From Argopecten irradians (Eukaryota > Mollusca > Bivalvia > Pectinida > Pectinidae): 64,000 nt of DNA. The stretch spans positions 10,014,755 through 10,078,754 of the forward strand of contig NC_091134.1 in the NCBI RefSeq assembly GCF_041381155.1. The letters run 5' to 3'. Shown here piece after piece: positions 17,353 to 63,542 of this stretch (its first letter is position 1; each line of letters starts with the position of its first letter). Under the pieces are notes generated by a model, which saw only the letters and a list, made by a program, of their open reading frames with translations, was not told where the DNA came from and ran no database searches. The translations under genes were made by a program, and so were the position numbers.

Positions 17353-20093
17353 TCAGCCGATAAGCAGTTTGGCGACGACCCCGACCAACAATACCATGGG
17401 AGTCAGGACGTGGCTCTTGGAACCGCTATTAGTTTCACCTAAAGAGCAAATTGTTATTATTAACAGTATACATTAAAGAAATCGTTTTAATTTCCTAGTG
17501 AAAACAATCAATAAGTGTATGTTTCTTGGACTTTGAGGATTTTTGATGATAGAAAAAAAGAATGATTCGAATTGGAGAGTTCTGTGTTTGGGTTTGGTAT
17601 TTTTGAGTCTTGTTTTAGATTAGATAGTGTCTCTTCCTTCGCAGATAAAATATTTCTCACAATCAATGTAAGCCAGTTCCATAACCTCGTAAGCGAGGGA
17701 AATATGATAGAAATGCCGTGAAGTACAAATAAACTATTATGTTAAAATGTTTTAACGCGCAAATTGATTCATTCCAATGTCAAACAATAACCTCATCATT
17801 GGCTTTATAGATCTTAACTGTCATCCTGATCAGTAAAGAAGATAAAACTACAGAACATAATTATTGTATCTTTCTCGCTTTTGAAATTTTACATTAAAAA
17901 TTATTAATTTACCTGTGCATTTGTATAGACAATCTTGCTGTGCTGTGCATTTAGAACCACAATCCGCGGTAGCTGTTGCTGGAAACGAAACCATGTCTTT
18001 ATTAAGTTTTTACCAAAAACTTTTCTTAGTGAATCTTACGCTACACTTTTGCCTGTTAAACTCAGGATTAGAAAAGATAACGTTGTAACAAATAAATTAT
18101 TTTGTTAAAAAAAGAACGCCAAAACGTCCTTATGGTAAGGATAGCAAGCGCAATGCGATCCAAATGTGAACTACGTACCATTTTGTTTATGTCGACTTGC
18201 ATATGTTTAAGTCATTCGATTTCATTTGCAAACTCATTGAATGCCAAATTGCGTCGTAAGGCATAATGAACTAAAATCATTAATACCATTTTTGTATGTT
18301 CGAATAATCAACACCAACATTACTAAAATATATATAGAGAGAATAAAAACAATTATTTATTACCTCTACGTTTCCGGACCGTAGATGCTGGTGTTGCTAC
18401 AAATATCAAATTAGATACTACATATATATACAATCACAAACTAAATAGTTTTACGTTTTTGAACATCATATAAACCAATTTCCACAAAAACCTTTTCCTA
18501 AAAATATTTAGGAAGGGAAGCATCTTTGTTTACGGTGGATACGAACGTTTTCTTATACAGAAAATGTTGAAAGAATGACAAATTCTAATATCAATACAGA
18601 CAAAATGACAGATTCAATTTTCTCTAAGCTTTGACACAAATGACATAAACAATTTGTAACTTATCAAAAATATTGAAATTTTGGTTTTATTGTATGTGAG
18701 ACATTTACTCTTCTACAGTATGGAATTATGTATCAATAGATACGTAGTGTATGGGCTCATATGTCAATGGAATACATTTTAGTCATATAGTTTATCTTTT
18801 GCTAGCATAACTACGCCTATGATATACCCCCATTCGAAGAGGTGGGTCTCCGAATAATGACATATCCCCGTAAGGTGGGTTTCGTAGAACATAATGTTAC
18901 ACTGAAATGTTCAATAGACGTATAATAGGATACGTTACTCGCTAGAGTAGTTGTTGGTGTTGTTATAGGAGCTGCTGTTGTTGTCGTCGTCTGCGGCACA
19001 CATTCAGGAGTCTTGCATTTACCCTTGTTTCCACATGGATCATCTAAAACTTGGGTGGTAGTACAATGTTCGAGTCCATCTTAAAAGATAAAAAAAAAAT
19101 CGAAACATTTCATAGAAACAATTTCTTACTTTCTATATAACAATATAAACGAGTAATATTTCACATTGCCACCTGTAAATATCGTGAATAATCAAAATTC
19201 AATATTTTTAAATTACTAAACGATACATAATGCAAGTATAACTTCCGTAATGTATGCGTTGTTTATAAATGGTAATGCAATGACTTGACCCAAATATTTG
19301 ATGATAGCCAACTGCATATACGGTATTGCTTACATACTCATACATGCATGTAGTTGACTATGCCACACAAGATGCTATTGATACGAGCGTTGATATGTTG
19401 AATGATGTCTTGTAAACACATCATGTACATGTATAGATAATCTTTAATACTTAAGTACAGGTCCACGTGATAACACAGAGAAATACACGTTTTCTTTGGT
19501 TTATTTTTACAAAATTATTAAGGCAACTATCAATGACTATTAAACGTTTAGGGCACATCCCTGGTTTAAAGCAGAAATTCGTCACATAACGTGTAGATCA
19601 CAAATTGAACAACTTATACCAATTTATTTCAATGCATCTTAAACGAAATATAAAATTTCGCACTTTTTTTTGGTCAAGTAATCTGACCTAAGCTTTTGAA
19701 GATTTCATTGATAAAGCAAATTCCTGTTTGTTTCAGAGGGGTAAAACAATCGCGGCTTTTAAAAATATGGTAAACGAATGTATATTTTATAAATGTGTTT
19801 GTCACCGGGAAATGGGTATTGATTAAGACATAAGAGACATGCCATAGTTACTGTACCTCTTTTTAAGCATACAATAACGAGCATTTTTTAATCTGTTTTC
19901 AATTGACTGGTTATTCTATATATGACGTTTTGATATAAATATAATTTGATAACTACCAGCAATTGTGTTGGATGTACTAAAAGGATTTGATATCGGGGAT
20001 GATTGTGTTTTACATTCCAAAGGTTATAAACTATTAATACTCACATGCAAAAGATATCAGAGTTATAACCACTAGGAAAATAATCCCCTTCAT
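17353..20093 (-). CDS. Gene A: small secreted, GPI-tailed protein with two 4-Cys modules (5 coding exons, 124 aa)
   Basis: Unrecognised family. Coding exons, in transcription order: 20093-20045, 19079-18939, 18396-18364, 17978-17913 and 17438-17353. Every internal junction is phase 1 with AG/GT borders, and the total is 375 bases. Residues 1-16 are a signal peptide (MKGIIFLVVITLISFA). Residues 22-43 form C-x9-C-x5-C-x4-C. A Thr-rich stalk spans about 47-69, and Arg71-Lys-Arg-Arg74 is a furin-type site. Residues 81-95 form C-x3-C-x5-C-x3-C. SGSKSH is followed by a hydrophobic tail ending at 124, like a GPI signal. A 5' non-coding exon ends at 20328. There ACG sits where genes B and D have ATG, so translation should start at the ATG in the next exon. 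Function unknown; a cell-surface or shed peptide is inference. Confidence 0.85.
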
Positions 20094-20327
20094 AATTGTC
20101 TGAAAAAATGAAAATAGTCAAATCGAGTTAAATATGATCGTTCTTAATACGAAAAAATATTTTTCAACGTAATTGCAAAATTCTTATATTCTTTTTTTCA
20201 TTAAAACAGCAAAAAATCCTAAAATTCAAATTCCTGAAATCAGTTATATGCAGAAATATCACATTTAAAATAAACTATTAATTATCCATTTTTCGCTAAT
20301 GGGGTAAGTTGATTATAACCGACATAC

Positions 20328-20444
20328 CGTGAATATTCGTGTAATACTCCAACAGTGGATGATTATCGGTCTCGTTTGATATCACAGTTGTAGATGCGGT
20401 CCCCGAACTGCTAGGGAGGGTAGCTATCATACTCGTTTTATATC
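20328..20444 (-). promoter_or_regulatory. Promoter and 5' non-coding exon of gene A
   Basis: GATATAAAA at 20444-20436 is a TATA box on the - strand. A non-coding exon probably starts near 20407 and ends at 20328 before GTATGTC. The surrounding words (AATGTTTGG, TTTACCT, AACCTTATCA) recur upstream of gene B near 31350-31390, so the promoter was duplicated with the gene. Confidence 0.55.
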
Positions 20445-20717
20445 AGTAATGTTTGGTGTTTACCTAGGAAACCTTATCACCGACTCAAACAAAACACACT
20501 ACGCATTCCAGAGGAAACATAGATATTACATGTGGTATATGCAGACATAAAAAGTGTTTTAGGTCTCCACCCGTGTTATAATTGTATATGGACTTTGCAT
20601 ATATACAACAATGTATAGACCGATTCGACCATTTCATTTGACATATTTAAACTGTGATAATGTATATTATTAAGAAATGCAGTTACATTACACGTGTCAG
20701 CTACAACGTATATAAAT

Positions 20718-23270: not shown

Positions 23271-23280
23271 CACAAACTTT

Positions 23281-23662: not shown

Positions 23663-26600
23663 TTAACGGATGAACAGCTTGGCGAAGACTCCGATCAAAA
23701 GTACCATAGGTGATACAGCATGCTTGATGGATCCACTTGCTGGAATAGAAGAAATATTAGTTGTCCCTTGTAGCTTTGATACAAAAGGCCTACAGAATAT
23801 CCTACTTATAGTTGAATTATTAACTGCAAGGCGAGAATGAATGATATAAATATTCTTTCGAAAAACTTGATCAGGATATCGATGTAATGCATGGGCGTGT
23901 ACAATCAACGAAACAAACTAAATTTAAACATAGAATGGAATAATATGTAACGTCTAAATTCCGTATAATGACTATTGCTATTTTTACTAAGAATAATTAA
24001 TTGCATATAACTTTATTGCTTGTCTGATCGTCAGCTAGAAAAATACTAAAGTGAGCCGGGGTTAGTGTTTGAGCATAAAAAAGCAGTAAAAAACAGTAAA
24101 ACAAAACACTTGCAGTTTTATTTGCAGATGTCAATCAATTGAATTTATTGATTTTTGATATTAATATTGTTTTAGATGCTTTTGTTGATGATTTCTTTTT
24201 GTGGTACATTGATGTGACTTACTTACTTTTGCATTCATATAAACATGTTTTTGCAGATAAACAGGTCGGGGAGCATTTTGCTGAAAAGAAGAAACAATAT
24301 CACAGAATTTAACTAGATACAAATATTGAGTTTGTTACCTTAGAGTTTTTTATGTAAAAGTATTTTTCCACTAAGTTTGATTTTTGAAAATAAGACTTCA
24401 TACATATTTATGGTACAAAACAAATTACTTTTGTGGTGTGCTTGATTTTTTAACTACTGTAATTCAACCGTAACTATGTGTGGTTTTACCAGAATTTCAC
24501 TATTTGACCAAAGCAGTAAAAGTTAAGCTAAAGTAGTATTTTCGAAATTGATTGTTTGATAAGGATGCTTGTTTGCAAAATTAATAAAGAAAATAAAGCT
24601 TGTTTTTTTAAAGAAAATCTTTATAACACACATCCAACAATTCGTTTTGCTCAGATAACAACATATGTTACCCCAACCGCCTGAATTGTGAAGACGAAAA
24701 TTTTCTGGTTTTTCACAAATCTCTAACGCCTCAGAGAAGTTTTGATGACTAACATTTTTCTAGAATCTTACAGTTCCGTAGACAAAACATGTTTTTTAAA
24801 TGGCATACCAGTTGGTGGCTGTTGTCCCTTCACACATTTTTTTTTTCATTTTTCAGTATTTTTTTCTGTCTAAAACTTCAAATTACTATAACTACACTAA
24901 AAATACGTAAAACTAAATAATGATAGGTTATTATTTCACACTTTAATCATAAAATATATATATTAATGTATCACAGTTAACTTTTACAGCATAAGTGAAC
25001 TTAATATGTCTAAAAATGACGTCGAACAAGCGATTTTAATGAGAATTTGGAAGCCAAAAAAAGGTAACATTTGATCCTCTACAAAGCATAAGAAGCGTAC
25101 AGTTTTTCCAAATGACCGACATTTATATTTTTCATTACTTTAAGGATAATGTTATAACACATTCTACAGACAATAGGAGTCTGAGTTATTGTCGCATATT
25201 TCTGACAACTTGCAACAAGGTTTTTTTTCTTTTTTTTTTCTTTTTTTGAAAATTATTTAAAAATTGTTCAACCTTGAAACGAGACTTTTTACAAGACTAA
25301 AATATCACCAGAGAAGATCCATCCTTAAAATATATAATATAATTTTGTAAATAAGATCCATACCTTTTTCAGTTGATCGTCGTTTTTCCGGCCGGACACT
25401 GAAAGCTTAGATAAAAGTATTTTTTACTTCCTAAATCTAACACATTATAAAAACGAATACATCTTAGCACATACTATAACAATAGATGTGTTTCTCATAC
25501 TTAAAACATGCCATCTGCGATCAAGTACTCCTCGACTTATACACATGTCTATTACTGAAATATTCAACTTTTCTAATTGATTCTTTACCTGTAACCCTTT
25601 GAGAACTAATCCACTTGTTTATTTTATTAAAACAGCAAAATTGAATGACCTATGTGTGTCTGGTACTACAATATTATCATTTCTCTGTTTAGCTTTAGAT
25701 GTTCAGAATGGAGAAATTGTTTTAGAGATAATGAGAATTTTTCCAACAGAAAACGAAAATGAAAATGGTGACCTGAAAAGTGTTTTTTCCGGATATTTCA
25801 TGTGCAGCATATGCATAAGTATATTCGTGCAACACATAATGCTGAACAAAAAATACAAAATAACCAATCATTGTTTAAGTTTTAGATGATGAAAAAATGA
25901 CACTTTAAGGTTTAATCAAAGTGGGCATTTCCGTCGATTGATGGGTAAAGAAAAAGAAAGCGCCGAAAGAATCGCCCTTAAACACCACAGTTTTTTGTAA
26001 AGGGGAATAACTTAAGAAGAAGACCTTCATTATAACTTGACAAGAAGAAAACTGAAAAATTCACAAAAAAAACATAAAAATAGAGGTATCAAGGAAACAT
26101 ACCTCTATGCCTCGGGTTTAAGATATTAGGCCTATACTCGTGACAAAAAAACCGATGAAAATATAAAACGAACGAGGGTCATATAGGACATTTGTAAGGC
26201 ATGATGGAATTTTAAATCAGGGGAAAAGAAATCCAAAAGCACAAAAGCTTCGGTTTATTTCATTTGCAAAAGAGGATGACAATAAGTGTTATTTCTGGAT
26301 CCTAGGACGAAACACTACATCAATACCCGTTAGACACCCTATCGAATGCATAAAGTCTCATTCTGCCCTCCGTGGTTGTCAGGTTTGCCCACGCTTACAT
26401 TAAAAAAATGTTTTATAGTGATAGACAATAAACTGAATGTTTACACCCCATATTCAATCATAAGTAAAAAAGCAAATTCTAGGAGCAATAAGGAGAAACA
26501 TTTAGACATATGGACAAAATCACTTTCCTAAATTTATATAAATCCCCCTGTTCGACCCCACTTTGAATACGCATCACAAATCTGGACGACGATATTTAAT

Positions 26601-29600
26601 AAAGACACCCAGATCATAGAAAATGTACAACATCGAGCTACTAAACTGGTTAATCCATTAAAAACAAATCATACTCGGAAAGACTCCTTGTCTTAGGACT
26701 ACCATCACTCCAATATAGACGCGCCAGAATGGACATGATTGAGATATACAGGATTCTTAATGAAATCGACCTTTGTGACAAAACCAACTTACTATCATTG
26801 AACAATGAAACCAGAACAATAGGTCACTCCAAAAGGGTATCAAAATCACTGTAGATTAAATGACAGGAAATTCTCATTTTCACAAAGAACAGTAAACATA
26901 CGGAACAACCTATCTGACAAAAAAAGGTAGTAGTCATGTTCTTACTTGGAACCCAGTTTAAATCATCTCTAAAATGAACTGTGGAAGAAACAAATTCTGT
27001 CCAGATTGTTATTCCGACCAACCGGAACAGGAAGTAAGTAGTACTGTGATGGGTCAGAGAGGCGACGACCGCCTATGACCTCGACGACAGGTAACAGGTA
27101 TAGACTTATTACGGGGGTTTCGGTCATCCAAATTAACAATTAAACATGTGTTTACCCAAACCCAGAATTGACCGATCGCCAGACAGCTCACGCACTTGGG
27201 TGCATTTAATGTCGGGGCGAACGTCGTAGCATACGCAATATAAAAGGCAGAGTTACGTAGTGTTTGATTGACAGATCATCAATTTTCCCAAAGATGTCAG
27301 ATGGGGATATATGAGCATTACATGTACATAAGGTAAGTCATCATATATTGTAACTATCCCAAGCTATATTCCCTACCAACATATTCTTTGAAACACATTT
27401 TACCACAGAGATATTAAATTAGGGGATGAAATGCCATTTTTCATGAATCTACTTGAGATTAGATCATGAATTTTAGTTTTAAAACGAGACGAAGTCATAG
27501 ATATGATGATAGAAGACTCCTCCTCTACCAGGTGCTGCTGTTGGTCCTGAACCTCCTGAACTTCCTGCTGCTCCTCCTCCTGCTGGTGCTGCTGTTGGTC
27601 CTGAACCTCCTAAACTACCTGCTGCTCCTCCTGCTGGTGCTGCTGTTGGTCCTGAACCTCCTGAACTTCCTGCTGCTCCTCCTCCTGCTGGTGCTGCTGT
27701 TGGTCCTGAACCTGCTGGCGTTGTTGGTGGTGCTGCTGTTGATAGTATTGTCACACCAGTGGGATCAACACATTTAGGGTTGATGCATTTACCGCCGTTT
27801 CCACATTCTGAATTCAATAATGATGATTCTGGGCAATATGAGGTTCCACCTGAAATGAAATTGTAAATATGAGTTTTTCTGCAAGAATTTATTGCACATT
27901 TTTTAAAAAAAAAACTCAAATATTTTAGCGCATATATTATATAAACAAATACAATTATAAATCGATGTTTTACGTTTTGTTGTATTATCGTTATGTGATT
28001 TCGTTACTAAAATTTGACCTAATTATATGTGCCGTTATGTGCAAACTCATGAATTAAGAAGTTTTTGATATGTTTTACACGTCAAAAATATATCAACATT
28101 TTGAAAATACTTACAATGCAGAGTTTTTAATTTTGCACACAAAGGCTCAAAATGAGTCTTGCCAGTATTGCAAAAAATCAATACATTTGCATAACAATGG
28201 GTTAATATGGTCAGACCAAGAAGCCAAGTTGTAGTCTATGTACATGTTAACAGTTTACTTAGTAATCGTAAAGTGACCTCTGCATATATATGTTTTCATT
28301 TAAAAAAAACTTTATAACTTTTTGTCGGTGCCTTTGAATGGTTTTTACAGCTTGATTCATTATCATCAAAACAAATTTTAAATAGAGTACTAAAGAAAAT
28401 ATAAGATATCAAACTTTTAGCCCATATATGGCACATTATTATAACTTGATTATTTTTAGGATGACTACAGTTGTTTTAACATTATTATGATTAGCTTGTA
28501 ACAAAATATCATGAGACATCAACACTTTTTTATCTAACTAGACGCTACCCAAATTGGACCACTTTTGAAGATAAGTATTAAAAATTTTCTAGTGTGTGCT
28601 TGAATCCAGATTGTTCACTAACATTCCACAAAAATTGATGCATTAAATTTTGAGATAATGATTTGTTAATTGTCAGCATGCATCTATTGATAAATAGAGT
28701 TTTGAATCATGCCTATTTCAGCCCTATGTTTCCGCAGGATTTTTGGTACCCGAAATGGAAAACTTTCTAAATGTGGTTTGATTAATACATACATGTACCT
28801 AGCCATGATGAAAACTATTTGAATCAATTTAAGGAAGGTCAAACATTCTTTTTAATTCAAAATTGTCACAATTGTGTCAAAGATATCAAATTCAACAATT
28901 GTTTTTCGTGTTTTTAAATATATGGGGATCATAAACAGCAGGAATGAAAAGTACATATTCAAAGTGGCAAAGTTACTATTCAGCACCTTAATTTTTGTTA
29001 ATGACAGTTATTGTTAGTTTACATTGTAATCTCAAACTTCTGTGTCACATATTTAAAAAGTGTTCCGTTGTGGGTAGCGTTCCAATTTGGGTAGCGTCAC
29101 GCTATACCACATTCACAGTTTAACTCATACTGCTTATTCTATTACGATACTAACTATTGTACGTGACAAATTGTATACATGTATATGTATGCATATGTAG
29201 GTACAGATTGAAAATTATGATAACACCTATTCAGTCAACCTATACATTTGTATTGGTGTATTTTATCATTTTTTGATATGTCCTTTTTGAATAACATTCA
29301 TTTAATGAATGTGGCGTTTCTTTTTCCACGATAAATAATTGAAGATATCCATTAAGTAATTCAATAATTGTCGCTATTGTTTGTGGTTATAGATATGTTC
29401 ACCACACAATTAAAAAATGCTTTATTGCAGTTTTTCAACCAATGGAAAAGCAACATAGTGCATACAATATATACATCAATAGACAGAATAGAACAGAAAC
29501 CGAAGGAAACGATATCGGTTTTATCGATGACATTGGCCACAAAAGAAAACAAAGACAAATGCAGTTACAATATACAGTACCTCCGTTGATGATCATTTTG

Positions 29601-31226
29601 TTATTTCCCTTTTAATATCGAACATTTTTTGTCGTACTACCAATATAATTTTTAAAAATCTGAAAATGCTGTAATTTTAATCGCCAATCGTAGGAGTAGT
29701 ATGTAGGCAAACTTTCATTTATACTGTTTTCCTTACAACATTTATCATATGAATACTCTTTCTTACCATTTTATTCCATTACATAAAGGTCATTTCATTT
29801 TTTTCACACACGTTAGGTTCTAGATCTATGTTGCGAATAGTTGATTCTAAATAAGGACATTCTTTTGGACAACATTCTATTTTTGTCACTGCAAAGTTTG
29901 CCATGAAACCTGAATATAAGTTAAAGGAAAACAAATATCTTAATACCTAACCAATAATAGAAATTTCCAGACATTCAGCAACTATAGCAATATCAAGTAC
30001 GCACGTGTAATACGAACAGAATAATTCTCTGTGATTCTTTCAAAAATGCCATTAACGTAGTAAGATCAGCTGAGACATACACAGATAACATACTTGCTTC
30101 ATATCAGTGAGTAAAACTAACTTCTCTTGTCAGTTTTAACATAATAAATGCGTTTGTGATAACATCTCTAGTATCATCTAAGTCAAATAATGAGACTATC
30201 AAGTACATCTTAGCGGTCGACAGAACTGTATCCGAGAGTGTTGTACAACAACAAACACAAATAACTCTTGTGGAATGTGTGTTCACGCCAAACGTTAATA
30301 TGTGAATTCAAGATTTATGTCATAAATATACGAAAGGTCGCTTGTAGTTGTTTATGCTTTTCAAAATTTATTTACTTGAAACACATTATTTTTTTCGAAA
30401 AAAATTATCTTGTCAAAGTAAAATTGCTGAGTAAATTTGCGAACCGCATCTTTGTCACAAATTCACTCAATAATTTTGCTTTGACAGGATGATTTATTTC
30501 AAATAAATAATGTGTTTTAAATATCATTTCGATGCATTCATTCCATTAGCCGCCTAAGTTACAAACCATTTTCGTGGTCATATTATAAAGTGATAATGAA
30601 GTATATTATGATTTAGAATAACATTTAAAATAAGCTAAATATTTTTTTCACAATATGTTGAGACATACTTCTTTCAGATATATTTTTGGTTTTCAGCATT
30701 TAAGCAATGCGGTCCAAAACACAACTGATCGTTTAATTGTTCTCTATATCGTTTAATTGTTCTCTATATGAAAAAACCAAACCGAAATGACTCATAACAC
30801 ATCAACTATATATGAATTAAAGTTATAAATTTAAAATGAACAGATATCAAAACTTAAATGAAAATATTTTTTTCTTTTCCATTGAGAATACTTACATGTC
30901 ATAGATACCAGAGCCATAAAAACAAAGACCGCACTACCTTTCATATTGATCTGAAACAATAAATGCCACACAAATAACAAATACGAAAGCGGGTAGATAA
31001 ATTAGCAGGAAAATCGCACTTGACCTAGATAGTCAACCATATGTAACTATAAAATAACATATAAGAGCACAAAATAAGGAAGTTTCTTGTGAAATCATCT
31101 CCAATTGATTTAAATATTATAACAATATATTTGCTTTTGGTACAGCTTTATAGCACGAACTGATAACCAATGTGTTGCTATATTTGCAATAAGATTTGTC
31201 GTTAGAATATATACATTACGTACCAT
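23663..31226 (-). CDS. Gene B: secreted, GPI-tailed protein with two 4-Cys modules and a Gly/Ala/Pro stalk (6 coding exons, 183 aa)
   Basis: Paralogue of gene A. Coding parts: 31226-31224 (ATG only, end of exon 1), 30950-30896, 27849-27529, 25405-25364, 24280-24227 and 23739-23663. The frame is kept through all junctions for 552 bases. The start is M-I-N-M-K-G; the second Met matches the gene A start. The signal peptide is followed by C-x9-C-x5-C-x4-C. A stalk then has three repeats of about 20 residues built on GSGPTAAPAGG and AAGSSGG. A basic site follows (RPEKRR), then C-x3-C-x5-C-x3-C (KCSPTC...CLYEC), then SGSIKHAVSPMVLLIG leading to a hydrophobic end. Exon 4 uses the acceptor TCTAAG/CTTTCAG, because only it keeps phase 1. 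The long introns hold a LINE piece and dispersed repeats. Function unknown. Confidence 0.85.
24640..25320 (+). repeat. Diverged copy of the dispersed repeat of about 0.9 kb (gene B intron)
   Basis: It shares ATAACAACATATG-TACCCC, a TTTTTCAGTATTTT block and a GTAAA-TAAAT block with 61580-62490, in the same order. The end, with TTGAAACGAGACT and CACCAGAG-AGATC, matches 55113-55160. Edges are approximate. Confidence 0.45.
26420..27025 (+). mobile_element. LINE 3' fragment (non-LTR retrotransposon, end of reverse transcriptase)
   Basis: Translated pieces read IDNKLN, ISKKANSR, RPHFEYASQIW, IENVQHRATKLVNP, GLPSLQYRRARMDMIEIYRI, SLNNETRTIGHS and LNDRKFSFSQRTVNIRNNL. These are the usual wording of the C-terminal end of CR1/L2/Jockey-group LINE proteins. 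The reading frame shifts several times and no upstream palm domain is present, so it is a dead 5'-truncated copy. It sits in the antisense direction within a gene B intron. Clade is not resolved. Confidence 0.8.
27529..27740 (-). repeat. Coding tandem repeat in gene B exon 3
   Basis: Three copies of a unit of about 60 bases encode GSGPTAAPAGG-AAGSSGG. The unit is GC-rich against very AT-rich surroundings. The antisense strand reads as runs of Leu, which is an artefact of the repeat. Confidence 0.85.
28541..29098. mobile_element. MITE-like element with 18-base perfect terminal inverted repeats
   Basis: GACGCTACCCAAATTGGA at 28541-28558 is exactly complementary to TCCAATTTGGGTAGCGTC at 29081-29098. 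A second partial GGGTAGCGTTC lies just before the right end. The 558-base interior is AT-rich without an open frame. The target duplication is unclear. It lies in the large gene B intron. Confidence 0.75.
29774..29915 (-). other. Candidate alternative terminal exon of gene B (Cys-rich, unproven)
   Basis: On the - strand an acceptor (TTATATTCAG, ending near 29916) is followed by an in-phase reading: CFMANFAVTK, then IECCPKECPYL, ESTIRNIDLEP and NVCEKNEMTFM, then TAA. Spliced to the signal-peptide exon, whose phase-1 junction fits, it would make a secreted peptide of about 60 residues with six cysteines. No copy was found in gene A. It may equally be chance. Confidence 0.25.
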
Positions 31227-31257
31227 GATTGTGGATACGGTATCTATACTCCTGTAG

Positions 31258-34904: not shown

Positions 34905-35285
34905 TACCCGAGGGTCACAAAATGTAGTTTTTGTGATCCCGATGGTAGAATATCCCTATCCTTCATATCCACATATGAAAGAGTATTTTTCTTTCATATC
35001 TCGACGTTTAATTGCAATTTTACAACTATGATATCCCGCCATTTTCAAAGAAAACCACGACTGGAAGTCAATTTTCCATACATGAAATATTACGTGATAT
35101 TTTCAACACAAATTCCGTTGTTTGCATCTTTTATAGTAAAACCAGTCATGTTTGTGAAAAAAGTGTTAAAATTTGACAGAGGAAATAGAGATTTTGCTGA
35201 CGCCGTGACGTCATTAAGCTTTATTACACAGGTAGCCATGCAATACAGCCTCAGGCGGCATGAGTGTATTGCCCTAGACTAGCAA
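34905..35285 (-). repeat. Dispersed repeat of about 400 bases (inverted copy)
   Basis: Reverse complement of 5815-6210, ending at GGCGGCATGAGTGTATTGCC. It interrupts sequence that is continuous in copies 2 and 3 (around 46440-46510), so it inserted after the first duplication. Confidence 0.75.

Positions 35286-40340: not shown

Positions 40341-40341
<1 letters not shown>

Positions 40342-40373
<32 letters not shown>
40342..40373. repeat. C32 homopolymer
   Basis: Thirty-two C in a row, flanked on both sides by the same CACATTTTTTAC. It lies in a pseudogene C intron and is absent from the matching part of copy 2. It could form i-motif or G-quadruplex structures, and its length may be inexact in the assembly. 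Confidence 0.9.
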
Positions 40374-41349: not shown

Positions 41350-41490
41350 ATCACGTTTGGCCTTCTGTTAAGAACTCGACCCTGTGAGGTAGGCACTGTT
41401 CCCTGGCCGAGACATACCGAAGTCTATACAAATGGTAGTTTCAGCTCCTGCTTTGCGCTCAGCATTGAGATTATCAACACCAGCGCATTA
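41350..41490 (+). repeat. Truncated dispersed repeat (matches 53775-53905)
   Basis: Shares CTGTGAGGTAGGC, CCTGGCCGAGACA and GCGCTCAGCAT with the longer element in copy 2. Here it stops at ATTGAGATTATC and joins sequence that lies 1.9 kb further on in copy 2, showing a deletion. Confidence 0.6.
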
Positions 41491-42589
41491 CAATTAGGGC
41501 TACAACGGCAAAGAGATAAAGATTATGGGAACTATTGTTTAATTTATCTATTGAAAATAGTTAAGGAAGAGGTGAAATTGTAAAATTAACGGTACGCTAA
41601 AAGTTATGTACCTTTGCTTTTAATTGCCAAAATACATACAATTTGGATCGTTTGAATAAATGAACAAGAGTAGCAATACAACCTACATATTATAAGATCG
41701 CGCGAAAACATTGTGGAATGCATAAATTAAAAATAACATACTCACCTCCGTAGACAATGACTATAGTCAACACAATGAAAACACATGTAACAGGAAGTTT
41801 CTCCAAAGAAGAAAAAACTAATAAAGTGGATACATACGTGTAGTAAAGTTAAGAAAGAAAAGAACTGGATTTTATAGGATCAAATCATTTATATCGTAAT
41901 GCGATTTTCAATTATTTAAAAAAAAAAACAAATAGTTATACAATATAGAAGAAAAGTATCAATCATAAAAAGTACTCAAATACTGTACAGTCAATTATTA
42001 TAATATGTTTAACGAATTGCGTATCGGCTTGCATGATCACATTTTAGTTATTGAGGGCACTCTCTCACAACGATGTTTTTTTTTTTATTAAAAAAGCCAA
42101 ATATGTTCTCTTGTGAATGGCGTTGGCAATAATCATTGTTTAATGCAAAACGAGTTTTGAAAATTGGAAAAACAGTACATTATATATTTAAAGAAAGAGG
42201 GAAGATGGCGACTGAAAAGGTAATCCTGATAGTGTTTTCTAGAAAAAGGCTAAGTTATTGACGATTGGCAATACATTTAAGATACTTCATTGTCCTTTTG
42301 AGTAGGTTTGACAAATACTTATTGTTTTTTATAATGAATTCCCAGAAATAAATATAAATCTAAATTAATAAGAATTAATAAAAGTCAAGCGTGTTGTTCT
42401 CAAAACAATAACGAACATTATAAAATATCTAATCTATATCAATGTACAAAAATAGAATAGCCTTTATAAAATATACGCACACATAAAAGAAAAACCGTAT
42501 AATGATATTATTTTAATTCATTCTAAACTTACAATAATGAATGATATATTCCTTATGTTCAAATGTGGTAGTTTTCAGGCGAATATGAC

Positions 42590-48333: not shown

Positions 48334-51300
48334 TCAGAGATTCAGGGAGAACTTGGTAATGACTGCGCTTATCAACAACAGGGGAGTCAATCCATGGACG
48401 TCATTAGCTGAAAGAGGAACGTGTTGTGCAGCAAGAATTCCTGGCGGTTTTTTGGACTGTCAATATATATTTCTGTACCACATTTGTAGGTAAAATCGAG
48501 ACAAAATATTTTACAAAATTATATTATTCTGACATACCCGTATTATATAAACATATATTTATAACTATATCAAATCGATTTAGAATTAATAATGCATAAA
48601 ACATGATACGTGTTTACAACAATTTGATACGTTTACAGTCCAAAGATATTAGTACCTAGATAACCCCTCCTGTATTCCCTTCACTGGTCATATCTTACCT
48701 GAATTCTTGTTGGGTTTTTTAGTTGTATTGGTGCCTAATTAGAAGAAAATACTCAATTTAGACATTTTTCATTTTATCGCAAATATTTTTAATATGTCAA
48801 TTAGAGCAAAAGAGAATAGTTGACACGTACAATTGTTGATATTTAACTTATTAAATTCATACCATCTTTAACTCCCTCAAAGCAATTTATTTACATAAAT
48901 GATCTACTTTTGCATGTTCGTCGTCAAATTGAAAACGATGAAATCAGATTCCCGTATATTTGGGTGAGTCGAAATACCATACTAACGTAAACTATGGAAT
49001 TCCATTACCATTCTTCGGGAAAACCTCCATGAAACAAATATCGACATCCTACTCAACTTTATCCACCAGAAAGATAATTCAATTCTTATATCTACGGTCC
49101 GAATTATTATTTTCATAGCTCAATATTAAATGATTTCCGTCTGATGAAGCATATATCTGCTTTCATGTGTCATGCTTGCATTTGATTTTTTTTTCTCACT
49201 TTTTTCTTTCTTTCTTTTTCTTACTTTTTTTTTTTACTCATTGGTTTATTCATTATTTTTCGTATAAGAATGTATCTACATTTGATACGTATTCTTCATA
49301 ATATTTCTTCATTCTAGTTCACTATATCATTCCTTCTTTCCTTCCCAATTCTTTGTTCTTTATTTTATTTTTTCTCTCCCTCTTCCCTCTCTATCATTAA
49401 ACCCGAACAACGCAATTATACTTGTACTTGTACATGTAATTGTGTGATGAACGAGAAAGAATGGCAGAGTGAAAGATTTGCATGGAAGATAACTATATTC
49501 ATATTTCATGATTATGTGATTAATGCAAAACTGATAAATTAATTGAAAAAAAAAATTATGAAAAAATTAATTTCAGGCGTTTGCATAGTTTGTTTACAAA
49601 CGTTTACACAAGATATAACGTGGCAGGATATTTAACGAAGTTGTGACGCGGCGTCCGATTCAAACTGCTTGCATCAAGGAGATGTGTGACAGAGTTCTTT
49701 AAACATGAAACATGACATTTTCCCGAATTTAGGTGATTTGCAAATGAAACCGATCAAGGAACATGTATAAACACAGGTAGGCCCAGTGACAGAATAGTGT
49801 ACTGTAAATACAGATATACCGACTCTTAGAATGTAAGCGTAAAGCTTCATCGCTGTTTCAATCACTACTGTTGTTTTCCTATCATATCTTTCAATTACAT
49901 CAAATGGAAATAATACAAATACATAGGACGTACATAAGGATCTCGTAATGGACAACATAGCGTTGCTTACACAACATGTAAACATTGCGACGTGATCGGC
50001 ACGTGAACAACTGTATATTATACAACATTTTATGATTATCATACGCACCAAAGAGAGACGATAGTGACATTAACATTGGAACTTTTCTACATTTTTATAA
50101 ACACACCTACGTATACCATATGTGTTCAAACCTATTTCGATAGGCCTACATGTTCCTCGACCGTACAATCGGTACTGAAAATACTAAGAGTTTCTGATGC
50201 GGAAATCACACATCCATACGCGTGGCTCCAAATTGCGCGTGACATACTCAATCTACCGAAAAATAAAGTTGAGTAGCCGTTGATTGAAATCAGCGGGGTT
50301 ATATTATCAATTCACCACTGACTGTAGATATGCTGATAATTTTACTTTTATGAAGAACATCACATGTATTTTCACGATGAAACCTTATATTGCACTGTGA
50401 AGAATGAAATAAATATGGATATGTAAATTTCAAACTTAACAACAAACATCACCGATAAATATAGCTGCAATATTGTAGTATTCTAGACAGATAATAATGC
50501 TGGTCGAAAAGCTGAGTAACCAGAGTACGTTCTTCGATATAAAATGAAGAAATAAAGTATGTGTTTTCTCTATTCACCTCCGGTTCCAGTGCCTGATGTG
50601 CCAGTGCCACCAGTGCCTGATGTGCCAGTGCCACCAGTGCCTGATGTGCCAGTGCCACCAGTGCCAGATGTACCAGTGCCACCAGTGCCACCACCAGTGC
50701 CACCAGTGCCACCTGTGCCACCAGTGCCTGATGTGCCAGAAGTACCGGTTCCTGTGAAGCAAATGAAAACAAAAGCAAGTACATGTATTTAACAAAACTA
50801 AATTCTGCATGAATTTTAAAATGTATATGTACCTTATTGCTAACAAATAAAGCTCTATCAAATTTATTTTCTTGAAGTATAAGGCGCTAATATAAGACTA
50901 TGAATTAACCACTATAATAATTAAAGCGACTGTTTATGATGTTCTTTATCGTATTAGTAGATATATTCTAGTAAATATCTTGTTTCTTGTTTAAGATTCA
51001 TTTTTTATGTCGTCTAAGATACCTCACGTGATAGATAAGTCGACTTAATCATAATGATATATAAATGTATTGTTATAAGTTTGGCAGGATAATCATAACG
51101 AAAGGACGCATTGATAAGTATTTGCAGAAATACGCCACCACACAAGACATCTATTAACAAATGAAATATTACAACGATTGCTAACTTGGAAATAAAAATG
51201 ATTGTTTCCACTCGATCCATGATACACTGCAATCTCGTTTCTGATCTGTTGAGGGGTTTCTCCCTCAGTAATGTTGTATAGTCAGATGATAAGATATGAC

Positions 51301-54300
51301 ACGGGATAGTTATACTTGACCTTTTATATGCTGTCACATATCAAGGCGGAAATGTGAGAGGTGTTATTCTTACCAGTACTAATACAGCTTCCCGAACATG
51401 TGCCATCTGTACCTCCTTTCGTGCAAGTAGACGGTGTAGCTGTACAGCCGGTTACATCATCTAGTAATAATATATGTGTATAATAATATGGACATGAAAA
51501 TATTGTAACCCTTTCCAATTGCTAACAAAAATATCCACATCTAAATTTTCCTTCGTGTAGACCTACTGTGCCATGCATAATGCGCAAACTTATTTCAGTT
51601 GAACGGAGTCAGTTGAACAAATATATAATTCAGTTCGTTGAGCAAAATGTGATGATATAAAACACGGCATTGCCCAAAATGTTGTATATGATGGACATTT
51701 GACAGTGATTGCATATTAAGTTAGATTAGTTCGATTTTGTTTCAGTTCCACAAAATGATTTAATTAAATGTAATATTTATTGTTAAATAAAATCAAATGC
51801 AACAATTTGCTTAGGAATATGCAATTCATGCCAAATATATCTAAATTATGATGGTATTAAGTAACTAAAATACGAAATAATACTATATTATAAATTGTGG
51901 TATGTGATCAATCATAACCAACTACTTACCAGCACCACTTGCAGAGCCAGCTTTGAGAGTGACGGTCGGAAATAAAATAGAATTGCAAAGTTAACACAAT
52001 ATAAACATGAGGGTCTCTGGTACCTAATATACTCATAAGTAAACGTTCATAATTCAGTCCTTCTTTGTCGACGTTAACGATGACACATTTCGAATCACAA
52101 ACTAAACTTGCATACTTTTTATCATTAAGATGAAGTTATGATTACATTATCATGTACATGTTATAATCCCTTCAATAGATTTAAGTTAATAAAGTATAAA
52201 CGGATTACTGTTTACCTGTCACTGTGCATGTAAACACACATGTCTTGCCCCCGGTGCATGTTGATGAGGAACTGCATGTTGGATCATCTGTTTAATGAAC
52301 ATATTTGTATTTTGTACCACACGTGCTACAATGTATATCCCAAACGATAGCATACAATCAAACGGAAATATACGTATTTAGTCAATATGTGCTATATAAA
52401 TAAGACGCATACAAAAAGTGTATGCTAACATCAGGGATAATCAATATCAAAAGTTTATCTAAACCAAAGTTTGCAAGTACAGATATATTCACAAATCGGT
52501 TTTATTATTGTATTGCTTGCATCATCACACACAGATCATATAAACAAAAACACAAATATAAAACATTTATGCTATTACAATTATTGAATCTAATTTATGA
52601 GTACTTTTGACGTTGATTTAACGATGCTTCACCGTCGACAGAGCATAAACGATACTCATGATTCGAACAATAACCTTTGTGTAATAGTGCATACATATAT
52701 GTCTAATTAGCTCAAAAATAATATAAAACCATTAATTTTTCATATAGGGCAGAGTGCCACGGAATATTTTTGCGATCCAATTAATTATTTTTAATTCCCA
52801 GTAAAATTAGAAGCTCAAACTTTTCAATGGTGGTAATGGTGTAAAGTAAATAACTTTTGTAACTTATTATATATAAAGAAGAACACTTATTCGTCATTTG
52901 TCAGTAGTGGAGCATTTATAAGGATTAAAGTGTCTTTCTGGTGGTTAAATCGAAGGATAAAGTTGATAGGCTATCGATAATTTTTCATAGACCGCTTTAA
53001 TCCTTATATTTACAGTCTTATCTATTATTTTCATAGCTCAATATTGACCTTATTTAGTATTTATTGCATTTATAAAATTAAAGTTGAATTATATCGATTG
53101 GCTCCGACAGGCATATGGAACAGCCAGTCGAAGTAGCGGAAATTCTCGCCAAGTTAATAGAAAGATTTAACGATGAAAACTAAATTCAGGGTTCTACCGA
53201 TCTGATGTTAAAATAGTGCAAATCAGTTTGATTTTAATCCTTTATATCATATAATTACACACGCTTACACGTTCATAACGTTGCAGGATATTTAACGTAG
53301 TTGTGACGCGGTGTCCGATTCAAACCGCCTGCGTCAAGGAGGTGTGACGAACAGAGAGTTTCTTCAACTTTGTGAACACTGGAGTTCTACTTTGATCAGT
53401 TCACGTTTAAAAGTACTTGAATACACGGATGTTTTAGTGGTTACATGGCAATCACAGTAGGGTAGATAACGAACAGGACTTGTCGGTCTCTGAGCTGAAT
53501 TAACTGTATTGCCGTGCTAGTAACATGTCGCTGCCGACACACAACATGTAAACATGGCGACGAGATGGAAATGTACAAAACTTAATAATTGCTCAAAGAG
53601 ATACGGGTATTAACACCAACAGTGTAACTTTCCTACGTACATGTAGGTCTATGTATGTGTGTTCAACCCTATTTTAATACACGTTCCTCGAATGTACAAT
53701 TGGTACCATGCCCTGCAGGTAGGGCGTCAGAATTGTACTATTGTATCATCTTTTCTCCTCTTCCTAAATAATTATGTTCTATCAAAGTCTCCCTTGACAC
53801 CGCCTCACTTTTAGCCTTCTGTTGAGCGCTCGACCCTGTGAGGTAGGCTCTGGGTTCTATCTCCTGGCCGAGACACACCAAAGTCTATAAGCGCTCAGCA
53901 TACAGGAAGTATATCGACTGGTTGATCCGTTGTCAGTTTAATGTGACCGGTTCGGGTGTGTTGCCTGGTGTCTTTGGCAGCATGCGTCAGTGATAAAAAA
54001 CTATAAAATGGGCAAAAGTTCCACTATACATGAAGACACGACACGAGAATACCGCATGCTCACAAATCACACACCACTCAATTCAAACACACTACACATC
54101 TCACACAATGGAGGTCGTCCTCACATGACCCTCGTTGTTAATTTAATCAAACAAACAAACACCAAATAAACAAACGATAGGTACTGAAAACAATAGTTTC
54201 TGACGGAGACCATCATATATGCATCCGTACGGCTCCAATTTGCACATGACATACTCAATCTATCGAGGAAAAAAGTTGAGTAGCATTTGCTTGAAATCGA

Positions 54301-56883
54301 CGGGTTTCATGCTACCAATCCACCACTGACTTTAATTATCAACATATACAAATGAAAGTTCATAATTTGGATTAATGTGTCTTTCTAATACTGGATGATG
54401 CATTTCGATGATTGATGCGTTCTAGTAATATACTGCCTACCGGAACGATTAAACTGTAATTCAGGAATTTTCATATCGGGAAATAAAATAACCTACTATT
54501 GTGTTATCCATACTAAATTGGAATATTATCCAGACATGTTGCGCATATATAAGGAAAATACATCGATTTAAAGCAACATGGCGATTCAAAAATAATTTTA
54601 GAAAATTATTTACCTAATAGAAGTATAACGTAGAGAATGGTCAAATTTTCTAAGCACACATAGACTTCAAGCGCAGACAAGTTCTTTGTGTATTACTCAA
54701 AAAATGACATGAAAATAATGTGTGAATGTTTTTGATTTTTTGTCCCGATACAATTTGTTACATTTCAGCATTTCTTGCTGAAAATGCAAATTACTTTAAC
54801 TTCACAAAAATGTAGAAAATCAAAACTAGTCTAATTTGTTATAATGCCACACGTTAAAACTTAATATGTTCATCACAGCGAACCTTTAGAAGAACTACAC
54901 AACTTGATATAGCTTGTAGTCGTGAATATATGTGAAAATATTGGAGAAAAAAGGATGAAAAGGGCATTTTTTTCAAAATGGCTGTCAAATTGGTCATTTC
55001 TCAAATTTCATGTATAACAATTTCTTCATGCATAGATGTCTATTTTTGATACATATATTTTCTTTTTGGCAAAATAGAGACAATTATGTTTTGAATATTA
55101 CAAAAACTCTTTGATTAATGTTGAAACGAGACTGAAACCACACCAGAGCAGATCTTTATTTAGTGACATAATTAACTTATTAAGCGTACGTTCGCAACAA
55201 GTATTACGTATGCTTCCTTAATTTTGAACATAAATAAGAACGTGAAAATGGGATTTTGAAAACGAAGTATGATATAGAGTTGGAATTACTGAAGAATTCG
55301 TGTTATGCGCTCAAAATATAAAACAGGTAGGGCATGGTTAATATCGGAATAGTCTTGTACATCCAGATTCATAAACCTAAGAGTCTGATTTAAATAATAC
55401 AATTTCGCGAACGGAGTCATATTAAAAAAAAATTGAAATTGTTTGGTTATTATGAATATGACATGTCGATTCTTTGATTATTTTGTTCCTTTATTAAAAC
55501 GTTGAATTGTAATATTTGCAATGCATATTGTGAAAATTTCTATTGTCAATTGCACTCTATATTATAACGTATTGTGTATTAAGTCCTTAAATTCCCTTGG
55601 AATGCAATATGCTTTTAATGTTATAAATAAATACTTAAAAGGACCACTATGTTTCCGAAACAAAAAATTAATGTTATAACATCTATACCCATAACACAAG
55701 AGAAAATGTCAACACAAAACAAATGTGAGATTCCGTATATGCAGCTTTAAAAACAATGAATGCTCATTTTGTTGTGTTTTATTTCGTGGTGGCGGAATGA
55801 TAATTAATACCATCGCATTATGATTAGGGCTAACAACGGAAAAGAGATAAACAATATGGGAACTGTTCTTTAATTTACCCATTCAAAATAGTTTAGGAAG
55901 AGGTGAAATTGTAGAATTAACGGTACGCTTATAATCGTTTTCACTAAAGCTTATTTTAAAGTTACATTTAAAGAAAAAAATCATTTCGATTAAGCTATGT
56001 ACCTTTGCTTTTAATTGCCAAAATACATAAAGATTTTATACAACATAATTACAAAAGAACAATTTGGTTCGTTTGAATAAATGAACAATAGAAGGGATAC
56101 AACCTACATGTCATTAGACTCGCGCGAAAACATTGTAGAATGTATAAATTAAAAATAACATACTCACCTCCGTAGACAATGGCTATAGTCAACACAATGA
56201 GAACACATGTAACAGGAAGTTTCTCCTAAGAAGAAAAAAAAGTAATAAAGTGGATATACTAAGAAATGTGAAGAAAGTAATTAACTGGATTTTATAGGAT
56301 CAATTCCATTTATATCGTAATTTGATTTTTATTTATGTAAAAGGAACAAATAATGAAGAAAAAAGTATCAATCATAAAATGTACTCAAATACTCTGAGTT
56401 AATTGTTATTATATTTTTCTACGAATTGTGTATCGGTTTGCATGAACACATTTTAGTTATTGAGGGTACTCTCCCAGAACGATGCTTGTTGTATTAAACA
56501 AACCAAACATGTTCTCTTGTGAATGCCATTGGCAATAATCAAAATTGTTTTATAGCAAATCGAGTTTTGAAAATTGGAAAACAGTACATTATATATTAAC
56601 AATATTGACATTTGGGAATACATTTATGAAACTTCATTATCCTTTTGAGTAGTTTTGACAAATACTTATTGTTTGTTATAATGAATTCCCAGAAATGAAT
56701 ATAAATCTAAATTAAAGAAAATTGTAAAATGTCAAGCGTGTTGTTCTCAAAACAATAACGAACATTATAAAAAATATCTATATCAATCTACAAAAATATA
56801 ATAGCCTTTATAAGATATATACGCACACATTAAAGAAAAGGTTGATAATGATAATTATTTCTAATTTATTCTAAACTTACCAT
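48334..56883 (-). CDS. Gene D: secreted, GPI-tailed protein with two 4-Cys modules and a Gly-Thr stalk (8 coding exons, 174 aa)
   Basis: Unrecognised family member. Coding parts: 56883-56881 (ATG, last codon of exon 1), 56225-56168, 52287-52216, 51950-51930, 51460-51374, 50751-50578, 48734-48699 and 48407-48334. All borders are AG/GT and all internal junctions after the signal exon are phase 1. The sum is 525 bases. The signal peptide (MEKLPVTCVLIVLTIAIVYG) is followed by DDPTC-x5-C-x5-C-x3-C. A 21-base exon encodes GSASGA, then comes C-x6-C-x8-C-x3-C. A stalk of about 58 residues is nearly pure Gly, Thr and Ser, with a GTGGTGTS period. Then come NTTKKPNKNS and HGLTPLLLISAVITKFSLNL at the end. 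Unlike A and B it has no furin-type site. The start is set by the only ATG that precedes the signal peptide in frame. Function unknown. Confidence 0.85.
50578..50751 (-). repeat. Coding tandem repeat in gene D stalk exon
   Basis: 174 bases of GGCACTGGTGGCACTGG-type repeat with a period of about 24 that encodes GTGGTGTS. The exon length keeps phase 1 on both sides. The other strand reads as Val-Pro repeats or as Trp-His repeats; both are artefacts. Confidence 0.9.
52618..52917. mobile_element. TTAA-family MITE in gene D intron
   Basis: Left end TTAA-CGATGCTTCACCGTCGACAG, right end TTGTCAGTAGTGGAGCAT followed by a damaged TTAA. The interior matches the outer parts of the 32825-33381 element but lacks its palindromes. 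Confidence 0.7.
53775..54165 (+). mobile_element. SINE-like dispersed element
   Basis: Runs from CCCTGTGAGGTAGGC through CCTGGCCGAGACACACC, GACTGGTTGATCCGTTGTCA and AAAGTTCCACTATACATGAA to a tail with CACATGACCCTCGTTGTTAA and AATCAAACAAAC. The tail matches that of the SINE at 11686. It lies in the gene D first long intron. Family name not assigned. Confidence 0.6.
54690..55165 (+). repeat. Partial copy of the dispersed repeat of about 0.9 kb
   Basis: CAAAATGGC-G-CAAAT-GG-CATTTCT and the AACGAGACTG-AACCACACCAGAG block relate it to 62370-62420 and 25275-25320. It is absent from copy 1 of the tandem unit. Confidence 0.5.
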
Positions 56884-56909
56884 AATGAATGATATATTCC
56901 TTATGTTCA

Positions 56910-61579: not shown

Positions 61580-62490
61580 AGGATGTACACCTCTGAGAAG
61601 TCAAAATTTTCTTGTATTAAACCTTTTTTTCTCATATAGATTTTTGGAAATAGGAGTTCATACCATATAAGAAAATGGAAGAAAAAACATATGTCGGTGT
61701 GCTTGTTTGTGAGCTATTGTCTCTCAAAGATACCAAGTTGACAAAATCTGAGATTTTTGGGGATTTTTGCCGTTTTGACCATATACACAAGAGTTTAAAG
61801 CCATAATTTCCTAATGAGATGTTTGATATGTATGGAAGTTTGAAGAATTGATTTTCCTGTAGTTTTCTTTAGAAATATACAAGTTTTGATTAATAAGACT
61901 CATATTTTGTCACATAATAACAACATATGCTACCCCTACCCCTTGGTTTTGAGCTACAAAATACACCATTTTCAGCCATTTTTGCCCAATTTAACCCTTT
62001 ATAGAAACAGTTGTGGTATTAAGCTTTTGTTAATATTTTGCATATCAATAGGATTGTTCTTTCTAAATTAGGCAGAAAAATGGGGGGTCAGTGTGCTTAC
62101 TTGTTTGCCCCATTTGAATATTTGTTATTTTTCAGTATTTTAGAATAAGAAATAAAAGTGATCAAATTACCATTATATGTAAAAATAAATTGACAAAAGC
62201 TTATCACTTTACGCAATAATGCTCAATATTTTAATAACCACGATCCTAGTAAAGTTTAGCAGCAAAAATTAGCTCGATACAGCTAAAAATGCTGGTGCAG
62301 TGATAATTTAAGCAAAAACAATTTCAGTAAGAAATGGTTATACTATGGCTCTACTCAAAGAGGAAAAAGACACAATTTCAAAATGGCCGCCAAATGGGCC
62401 ATTTCTTAAAATCCCTGTATAAAGAAAATCTACTGAAAATAGAAATATAATTTTTTGACAAAATTTGCACCTGGCAACATTCTACAGATA
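61580..62490 (+). repeat. Dispersed repeat of about 0.9 kb (+ copy, best preserved)
   Basis: Begins near GGATGTACACCTCTGAGAAG and ends near GCACCTGGCAACATTCTACAG. It interrupts sequence that is continuous in copy 1 (about 36805). Copy 2 has a different insertion of about 285 bases at the same spot (47101-47386). Confidence 0.75.
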
Positions 62491-63221
62491 TTGATAATAA
62501 TGAATACGGTAATGTGACCACGGTTGTACTATTAGTCAGCACCTTTGCAGCTAAAATGAATAAAACGCGTTTGTCGTGTGTGCTGCATGGGTGTATTTCC
62601 CTATAGCATTATAATTGTTAATCAAACAATATAACACACAGTAGCAAATTTTAGTTTATCCTTTTCCTATAGAATAAATCTAGTAAGACTTCATGTAAGA
62701 AACACCTTACAAAACGTTCAAGTATATGTGAAATGATTGTACGATAATCAACAGAAATTACTGCAAAACTTTGCAAACAAGGTTTTATTTCATGTAAAAT
62801 AAAATAAAAATAACCCATACATATCACAGCAAACACTTCGTTTGATATTATAATATACTTGTAATTTCTTTGTATATTGATATAAAATTACTTAAACGTC
62901 AATACGTTTAAATCAAATCCACTTTCTTTATATATCGTACGCAAATTAAAAACAATATCGATTGTTGAAAGATAAGTATTACAAATCTAAACTAATGGAT
63001 CGGAGTTAATAGCAAATATATCACACTTATGTCACAATACGTTAATCTCAGATGTAACGTAAGACGGTAAAAATCTCATATAGGCAATCAAGTTGTCCTC
63101 TCAATTTCCAACTGTCTTCATTTCATCATCTTAAATTGGCATGCCCAGCCATCCGTCATTAGAGTGAAGAAGCAATGACCTCGACATCAGGACGACCCAG
63201 CGCTGCGCGAACACATACACA

Positions 63222-63542
63222 TCAGAGACTCAGGGAGAACTTGATTATGACTGCGCTGATCAGTAACAGGGGAGACAATCCATGGGCGCCATTCGCTGAA
63301 AGAAGAACATGTTTTACATCAGTTGACATTCATATGGCAACATTAATGTGATAATCAATTCGTGTGTCGGATTCTAATATTTAAGGACCATTCTGTAAAT
63401 ATCTATACGAAACCATAGTCAAATTCAAAATTATATTACAGTACCACATTGCATAAAATCAAGTTAAATCATATACATAATATGATTTTCGACTTCTGAA
63501 TTTTCTTTACAGGTCATATCTTACCTGAATTCTTTTTGGTAC
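63222..63542 (-). CDS. Gene E: last two exons of a gene D paralogue (partial)
   Basis: Coding parts 63542-63525 (18 bases) and 63295-63222 (74 bases), AG/GT bordered and phase 1. They encode the TKKNS remnant of the exon 7 linker and a tail ANGAHG, then LSPLLLISAVIIKFSLSL, then stop. The tail exon has exactly the gene D length. The linker exon is 18 bases shorter than in gene D, an in-frame loss. The signal, Cys and stalk exons must lie beyond 64000, so whether the gene is complete cannot be judged here. Confidence 0.7.

What the first reader, a model, noticed from the sequence alone, without database searches (positions are those of the whole stretch)
17353..63542. Undescribed tandem family of small GPI-tailed, modular Cys-rich proteins
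Five - strand loci (A, B, C-pseudo, D, E-partial) share one plan: signal peptide, four-cysteine modules, low-complexity stalk and C-terminal hydrophobic tail. Nearly every part is on its own symmetric phase 1-1 exon, some as small as 18-36 bases. I assembled the exons by hand, and every junction kept frame in three independent genes, which is unlikely by chance. I recognise no named family. Inference: fast-evolving surface or shed peptides, for example immune, mucosal or shell-matrix related.
Basis: partly seen in the sequence, partly recalled or inferred. Interest (0 to 1): 0.88.

Follow-up and report, generated by a model that had tools for sequence, protein, structure and literature searches.

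The report
Tandem GPI-tailed cysteine-rich surface-protein genes
A stretch of animal-like DNA carries a small cluster of duplicated genes for short, probably lipid-anchored cell-surface proteins with tiny cysteine-rich heads on stalks; the genes look real and matched no family above cut-off in the libraries searched, but their overall kind is ordinary and their function is a guess.

Summary
The observation largely holds. Three complete minus-strand models, A (124 aa), B (183 aa, or 169 without one weak micro-exon) and D (174 aa), rebuild from GT-AG exons with an intact frame. C is a pseudogene; E is a 3' fragment. Beyond junctions: C, D and E lie on duplicated DNA units; A and B align by blastn in four collinear places, all at predicted parts; A/B codons show purifying selection (dN 0.46, dS 1.18, p 0.0013); shuffling tests link tails and one Cys module of A/B to D/E. 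The tails share layout, not sequence, with that of the neighbouring alkaline phosphatase.

Weaker than claimed: the genes are paralogs, so junctions are not independent; phase 1-1 exons are the normal animal extracellular layout; micro-exon B4 is unconvincing. No Pfam or NCBIfam match passed its cut-off; B's first module falls just short of the Dumpy-DPY model. "Undescribed" and "mollusc" cannot be settled here: no animal protein set, transcripts or species name were available. Best reading: a family of GPI-tethered, stalked Cys-rich surface proteins with a changing head and a kept anchor; one member carries a furin-type site in a frame-neutral exon.

The parts
17353..17438 (-). Gene A exon 5: GPI-type tail and stop
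   Evidence: A/B tail dN 0.27, dS 1.46
17913..17978 (-). Gene A exon 4: second Cys module (C-x3-C-x5-C-x3-C)
18364..18396 (-). Gene A exon 3: 33-nt micro-exon with RKRR furin-type site
   Evidence: (rank 2 of 15; rank 1 is the same exon from a nearer acceptor); acceptor only top 30%
18939..19079 (-). Gene A exon 2: first Cys module plus Thr/Pro stalk
20045..20099 (-). Gene A signal-peptide exon (start ATG inside)
23663..23739 (-). Gene B tail exon and stop
24227..24280 (-). Gene B second Cys module exon
25364..25405 (-). Gene B candidate 42-nt micro-exon with KRR (uncertain)
   Evidence: acceptor top 44%; rank 3 of 67
27529..27849 (-). Gene B first Cys module plus Ala/Gly/Pro stalk on a 54-nt minisatellite
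30896..30950 (-). Gene B signal-peptide exon
31224..31226 (-). Gene B start codon at the end of the first exon
37860..42554 (-). Pseudogene C; counterparts of D exons at 42533-42554, 41746-41803, 39835-39903, 39546-39566, 39030-39116, 38294-38327, 37860-37941
48334..48407 (-). Gene D tail exon and stop
48699..48734 (-). Gene D 36-nt micro-exon
   Evidence: rank 1 of 35 candidates in its intron
50578..50751 (-). Gene D Gly/Thr/Ser stalk exon on a 24-nt minisatellite
51374..51460 (-). Gene D second Cys module exon
51930..51950 (-). Gene D 21-nt micro-exon
   Evidence: rank 1 of 16; 19 of 21 identical to C, where other positions of the block are 81% identical
52216..52287 (-). Gene D first Cys module exon
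56168..56225 (-). Gene D signal-peptide exon
56881..56902 (-). Gene D first exon as taken (5' end not known), ending in the start ATG
63222..63295 (-). Gene E (partial) tail exon and stop
63525..63542 (-). Gene E (partial) 18-nt micro-exon

Best explanation
A tandemly duplicated gene family encoding small surface proteins: a signal peptide brings them into the secretory path, the C-terminal hydrophobic tail is exchanged for a GPI anchor, a Thr/Pro-, Ala/Gly/Pro- or Gly/Thr/Ser-rich stalk (probably O-glycosylated in A and D; in B and D on in-frame minisatellites that can change its length) holds anchor and head apart, and four-Cys miniature modules form the exposed heads. Copies arose by whole-unit duplication, with module exons combined through phase-1 introns. 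The most likely role is a changing outer-surface recognition or protective coat on an epithelium or blood cell; in A, and perhaps B, a basic cleavage site between the two heads would let the outer head be released. Shown: exon structure consistent with genes, duplication, selection on A/B, tail layout. Inferred: expression, GPI attachment, glycosylation, cleavage, role.
For: Frame-intact models; splice-site ranks (Fisher 5e-14 for 18 acceptors and 3e-19 for 17 donors; inflated because sites were chosen to look like splice sites); duplicated units C/D/E; A and B align by blastn at E up to 0.001 in 4 collinear places, all at predicted parts (upstream region with a TATA-like box, 63 nt, E 1e-9; signal exon and first Cys module, each E 0.001; tail with 3' flank, 172 columns, E 2e-11); purifying selection A/B pooled p 0.0013, from the second module and the tail; A-D tails beat 5000 block shuffles (p 2e-4), the other three A/B-D/E tail pairs 0.003-0.005; second modules of A and B resemble D's first (p 0.014 and 0.003 with Cys fixed). 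The neighbouring alkaline phosphatase, a family GPI-anchored in animals (recalled), ends in a hydrophobic run with Lys fifth from the end, as do A and B. A carries RKRR at residues 71-74.
Against: No transcript or proteome evidence. C/D exons are hardly better conserved than the rest (315 of 365 against 3093 of 3685 aligned bases), as expected if C is dead, but no support. D/E tail (p 0.23) and pooled D/C (p 0.48) show no significant selection; nor do the A/B signal exon (p 0.73) and first module (p 0.79). Of the 15 module pairs tested only A-B first module and B-D stay below 0.05 after correction by 15. In tblastn over the window neither A/B tail finds a D/E tail at E 1 or the reverse, and the cross-clade module matches (E 0.005-0.014) are no better than off-target ones at 49749-49784 (0.007) and 7579-7635 (0.013). 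The alkaline phosphatase tail is not similar in sequence (p 0.2-0.9). No GPI or signal predictor was run. B's basic exon is doubtful and A3/B4 DNA similarity is not above background (15 against 16 elsewhere in the intron).
Confidence: 0.6

Rival explanations
1. Shed or secreted effector peptides: the same genes make precursors that are cut at the basic site and at the anchor, and the free Cys-rich heads act as antimicrobial or inhibitor peptides.
For: RKRR in A and KRR in B's candidate exon; small four-Cys modules; weak sub-threshold defensin-like hit to A residues 64-101 (16.9 bits, cut-off 25, E 0.008).
Against: D has no such site; by eye D's modules are not cationic; the defensin-like hit is far below cut-off and did not recur with A's second module alone.
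Confidence: 0.2
2. Structural matrix proteins of shell, cuticle or mucus, anchored or deposited at an epithelium, next to a phosphatase used in the same tissue.
For: Gly/Thr/Ser and Ala/Gly/Pro repeat stalks on minisatellites; alkaline phosphatase gene in the same window.
Against: Neighbourhood alone says little; no matrix-protein family matched above cut-off; mollusc origin untested.
Confidence: 0.12
3. Hand-assembled artefact: chance open segments in intron or intergenic DNA joined by permissive AG/GT choice.
For: Symmetric stop-free micro-exon candidates are common (2 to 67 in each of ten introns); in B's intron two others outrank the one used; 4 of 18 acceptors are poor.
Against: Donor ranks, A/B selection, A/B alignments at predicted parts only, D-E tail match E 9e-9.
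Confidence: 0.06

Closest known systems
Class 1-1 modular extracellular proteins of animals (exon shuffling)
   Same: Signal exon, then extracellular modules between phase-1 introns; [quoted passage not shown]
   Different: Modules here are very short and match no curated family above cut-off.
Schistosome micro-exon genes (MEGs)
   Same: Short symmetric exons (36 bp or less) and multi-gene families, products exposed to the host (PMC8293314, 4 passages seen).
   Different: MEGs are composed mainly of such exons and seem restricted to schistosomes by that review; here 4 of 14 exons are that short. No sequence comparison with MEGs was made.
EGF-like / Dumpy DPY modules
   Same: B first module alone: DPY 25.5 bits (cut-off 27), EGF_2 17.7 bits (cut-off 22.1).
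   Different: Below both cut-offs, DPY 18.6 bits in the whole 183-aa protein; four Cys instead of the six of an EGF domain (recalled); A's homologous module has no hit.
Drosophila Sgf1/Sgf2 small atypical mucins
   Same: Small, Ser/Thr-rich, lineage-restricted neighbouring duplicates; Ser+Thr 24.8% and 34.5% there (PMC13373891, 12 of 24 passages seen) against 24.2, 20.8 and 35.6% in A, B and D.
   Different: Described there as secreted, with no lipid anchor mentioned in the passages seen; no sequence relation tested. Likeness of kind only.

Membership tests
GPI-anchored proteins | N-terminal hydrophobic signal-like run | tested here: met
   Best 12-residue hydropathy means 3.18 (A), 2.38 (B), 3.05 (D); no dedicated predictor run
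GPI-anchored proteins | C-terminal hydrophobic tail ending at the stop, small residues upstream | tested here: met
   hydropathy only, no GPI predictor; a Lys lies in the run, as in the window's alkaline phosphatase
GPI-anchored proteins | Actual lipid attachment | not testable with these tools
   needs phospholipase release or mass spectrometry
Schistosome micro-exon genes | Gene composed mainly of symmetric exons of 36 bp or less | tested here: not met
   4 of 14 exons upstream of a tail exon (lengths)
EGF-like domain | Match above curated cut-off | tested here: not met
   EGF_2 17.7 bits against 22.1 for B's first module; no EGF hit for the five other modules given
EGF-like domain | Six cysteines | tested here: not met
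   four per module
Dumpy DPY module | Match above curated cut-off | tested here: not met
   25.5 bits against 27 for the isolated B module, 19.9 in a 151-aa part, 18.6 in the 183-aa protein, none for A or D
Mucin-like proteins | Ser/Thr/Pro-rich stretch carrying O-glycans | tested here: inconclusive
   A and D rich in Thr or Ser; glycosylation not testable

The most novel reading that the evidence does not exclude
The symmetric 33-nt exon of A (and perhaps the 42-nt one of B) acts as a splice switch: included, it puts a furin-type site between two heads so that the outer head is shed; skipped, the frame is kept and the two-headed protein stays on the cell. Tethered and released forms of one surface protein would then be chosen by one frame-neutral micro-exon in a lineage-specific family. 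The weak acceptor of A's exon (top 30%) fits optional use but also fits a wrong call.
Probability: 0.12. Interest if true: 0.6.

Novelty: new member of a known kind. Interest (0 to 1): 0.36.

Why it matters
Families of this sort are easily missed by gene finders because their exons are tiny and the libraries searched here hold no model for them. If real and restricted to one lineage, the cluster gives a compact case of how new surface proteins are built from small phase-1 modules, and the optional cleavage exon is directly testable.

Tried and rejected
PDB sequence searches: A no match up to E 10; D's first 89 residues only a lectin at E 0.74; A/B first-module profile only ADAMTS-5 at E 8.3, a short shared Cys motif, kept as a lead, not as kinship. 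Other sub-threshold Pfam hits with no weight: bCoV_NS7B and TALPID3 to A, zf-C3H1 and Toxin_2 to B's first module. NCBIfam: only a sub-threshold Cys-rich repeat for B (12.7 bits, cut-off 25). Viral contigs: 52 pattern stretches, none confirmed; a repeat of the window, 0 matches. Phages: none for the first 58 residues of B, counted from its second Met. Rfam 0 matches and ARAGORN 0 tRNAs. Fold of the first module from a two-row alignment: mean pLDDT 63.8, too low, so no fold search was run. Ly6/three-finger kinship was thought of from memory only and not tested. Paper searches: 8, of which 6 looked for such a family and 2 for comparison systems; listings seen were 15 of 7,629, 7 of 7, 15 of 30, 4 of 4, 2 of 2, 7 of 7, 8 of 18 and 2 of 2. 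No listed title or abstract start described this family; the library is open-access only. Papers opened: passages of three.
Full report
Checking the observation. I rebuilt the genes on the minus strand. B gives 183 aa only if a 42-nt exon at 25364-25405 is used; its acceptor is poor (top 44%), and a better one 7 bases inside (top 8%) leaves 35 nt and breaks the frame; without the exon the protein is 169 aa. All 15 exons whose flanks one search printed have AG before and GT (or a stop) after. Against every AG and GT of the strand, 18 acceptors have a median rank of 3.1% and 17 donors 0.9%; 4 of 18 acceptors are outside the best 20% and 1 of 17 donors outside the best 10% (which corrects a one-base slip).

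How free the hand assembly was. I counted all symmetric, stop-free AG..GT segments of 15-45 nt inside ten introns: 2 to 67 per intron. The chosen micro-exons rank 1 of 35 (D, 36 nt), 1 of 16 (D, 21 nt), 2 of 15 (A, 33 nt, where rank 1 is the same exon from a nearer acceptor) and 3 of 67 (B, 42 nt, behind 26946-26978 and 27023-27043). Keeping frame at micro-exons is therefore not by itself unlikely by chance; D's two are good, A's is fair, B's is weak. Unused candidates also exist, for example 53809-53835 in D.

Duplication. C, D and E share their 3' flanks, and C and D share upstream region and signal exons; spacings run from about 10.4 to 14.4 kb for C-D and 14.4 to 15.1 kb for D-E. A and B share four collinear blastn matches at E up to 0.001 and no others: upstream region with a TATA-like box, signal exon, first Cys module, and tail with 3' flank; the middle two are at E 0.001, borderline alone.

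Selection. Pooled A/B codons (83) give dN 0.46, dS 1.18, Fisher p 0.0013 on rounded counts, driven by the tail (p 0.0036) and the second module (p 0.0015, synonymous sites saturated); the signal exon (p 0.73) and the first module (p 0.79) show no constraint, which fits a changing head on a kept anchor. D/E tails (p 0.23) and D/C pooled (p 0.48) are not significant. Exon and other aligned positions in C/D are about equally conserved, 86.3% and 83.9%, so C/D gives no support either way.

Pseudogene C. Relative to D it has lost the start codon, two acceptors (one with an in-frame AG 3 bases on), one donor (a 5-nt gap) and one module Cys, and has an 8-nt insertion in the tail exon; no counterpart of D's stalk exon was aligned.

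One family or two. Tail comparisons between clades reach p 2e-4 (A-D), 0.003 (A-E), 0.005 (B-D) and 0.005 (B-E) with block shuffles. A/B second modules and D's first share C-x5-C-[LV]-[YF]-x-C; with Cys fixed, p is 0.003 (B-D) and 0.014 (A-D) out of 15 pairs tested. Against this, tblastn over the window does not find D/E tails from A/B tails or the reverse at E 1, and the module matches between clades (E 0.005-0.014) are no better than off-target matches at 49749-49784 (0.007) and 7579-7635, inside the phosphatase region (0.013). I take common origin as likely, not shown.

What the parts suggest. The tails end in a hydrophobic run with Lys fifth (A, B) or sixth (D, and E by its sequence) from the end. 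The alkaline phosphatase on the plus strand (reading frames 7208-7615 and 13444-13842 match the start and end of the family model) ends in the same layout with Lys fifth from the end, though without sequence similarity; animal alkaline phosphatases are GPI-anchored (recalled). This supports, but does not prove, GPI tails. The stalks of B and D lie on minisatellites of 54 and 24 nt, both multiples of three, so length variation keeps frame. A has RKRR at 71-74 between its two heads, a furin-type motif (recalled); B has KRR only in the doubtful exon.

Known relatives. Pfam gives nothing above cut-off for A, B or D. B's first module alone scores 25.5 bits against DPY (cut-off 27) and 17.7 against EGF_2 (cut-off 22.1); its A counterpart scores nothing. 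The low-confidence fold of this module has a short hairpin (pLDDT 63.8) and was not searched. PDB, NCBIfam, viral and phage collections give nothing usable. Phase 1-1 modules are the standard kind in animal extracellular proteins (PMC8001218, passages), so the exon plan places the family in a known kind. Schistosome micro-exon genes (PMC8293314, passages) share short symmetric exons but are mainly made of them; here 4 of 14 exons qualify.

Limits. No animal sequence collection, transcripts or species name were available (one search shows no genome held). Mollusc origin is untested, and absence from print is untested beyond six searches of an open-access library aimed at such a family, one of them showing only 15 of 7,629 papers.

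Noticed in passing
7208-7615 and 13444-13842 (+): Alkaline phosphatase gene, first and last parts matched by Pfam, with a GPI-like C-terminal tail, beside the small-protein cluster.
   Followed up: partly
44394-44834 (-): Remnant with a DUF3504 match (34.5 bits, cut-off 29.7), probably mobile-element derived.
   Followed up: no
49612-50048 and 53272-53618: Duplicated intron blocks inside gene D, also present in C (40596-41111); a sign of internal recombination that could move module exons.
   Followed up: no
49749-49784 (-): Short in-frame stretch in a D intron resembling half of a Cys module (tblastn E 0.007); may be chance or a decayed module.
   Followed up: no
34930-34974, 45459-45504, 57739-57780, 59626-59670: Short dispersed repeat shared by several intergenic places.
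   Followed up: partly
32928-33189: 144-nt tandem array (1.8 copies) whose unit contains a near-perfect inverted repeat.
   Followed up: no
53809-53835 (-): A fair-scoring symmetric micro-exon candidate in D that no model uses.
   Followed up: no
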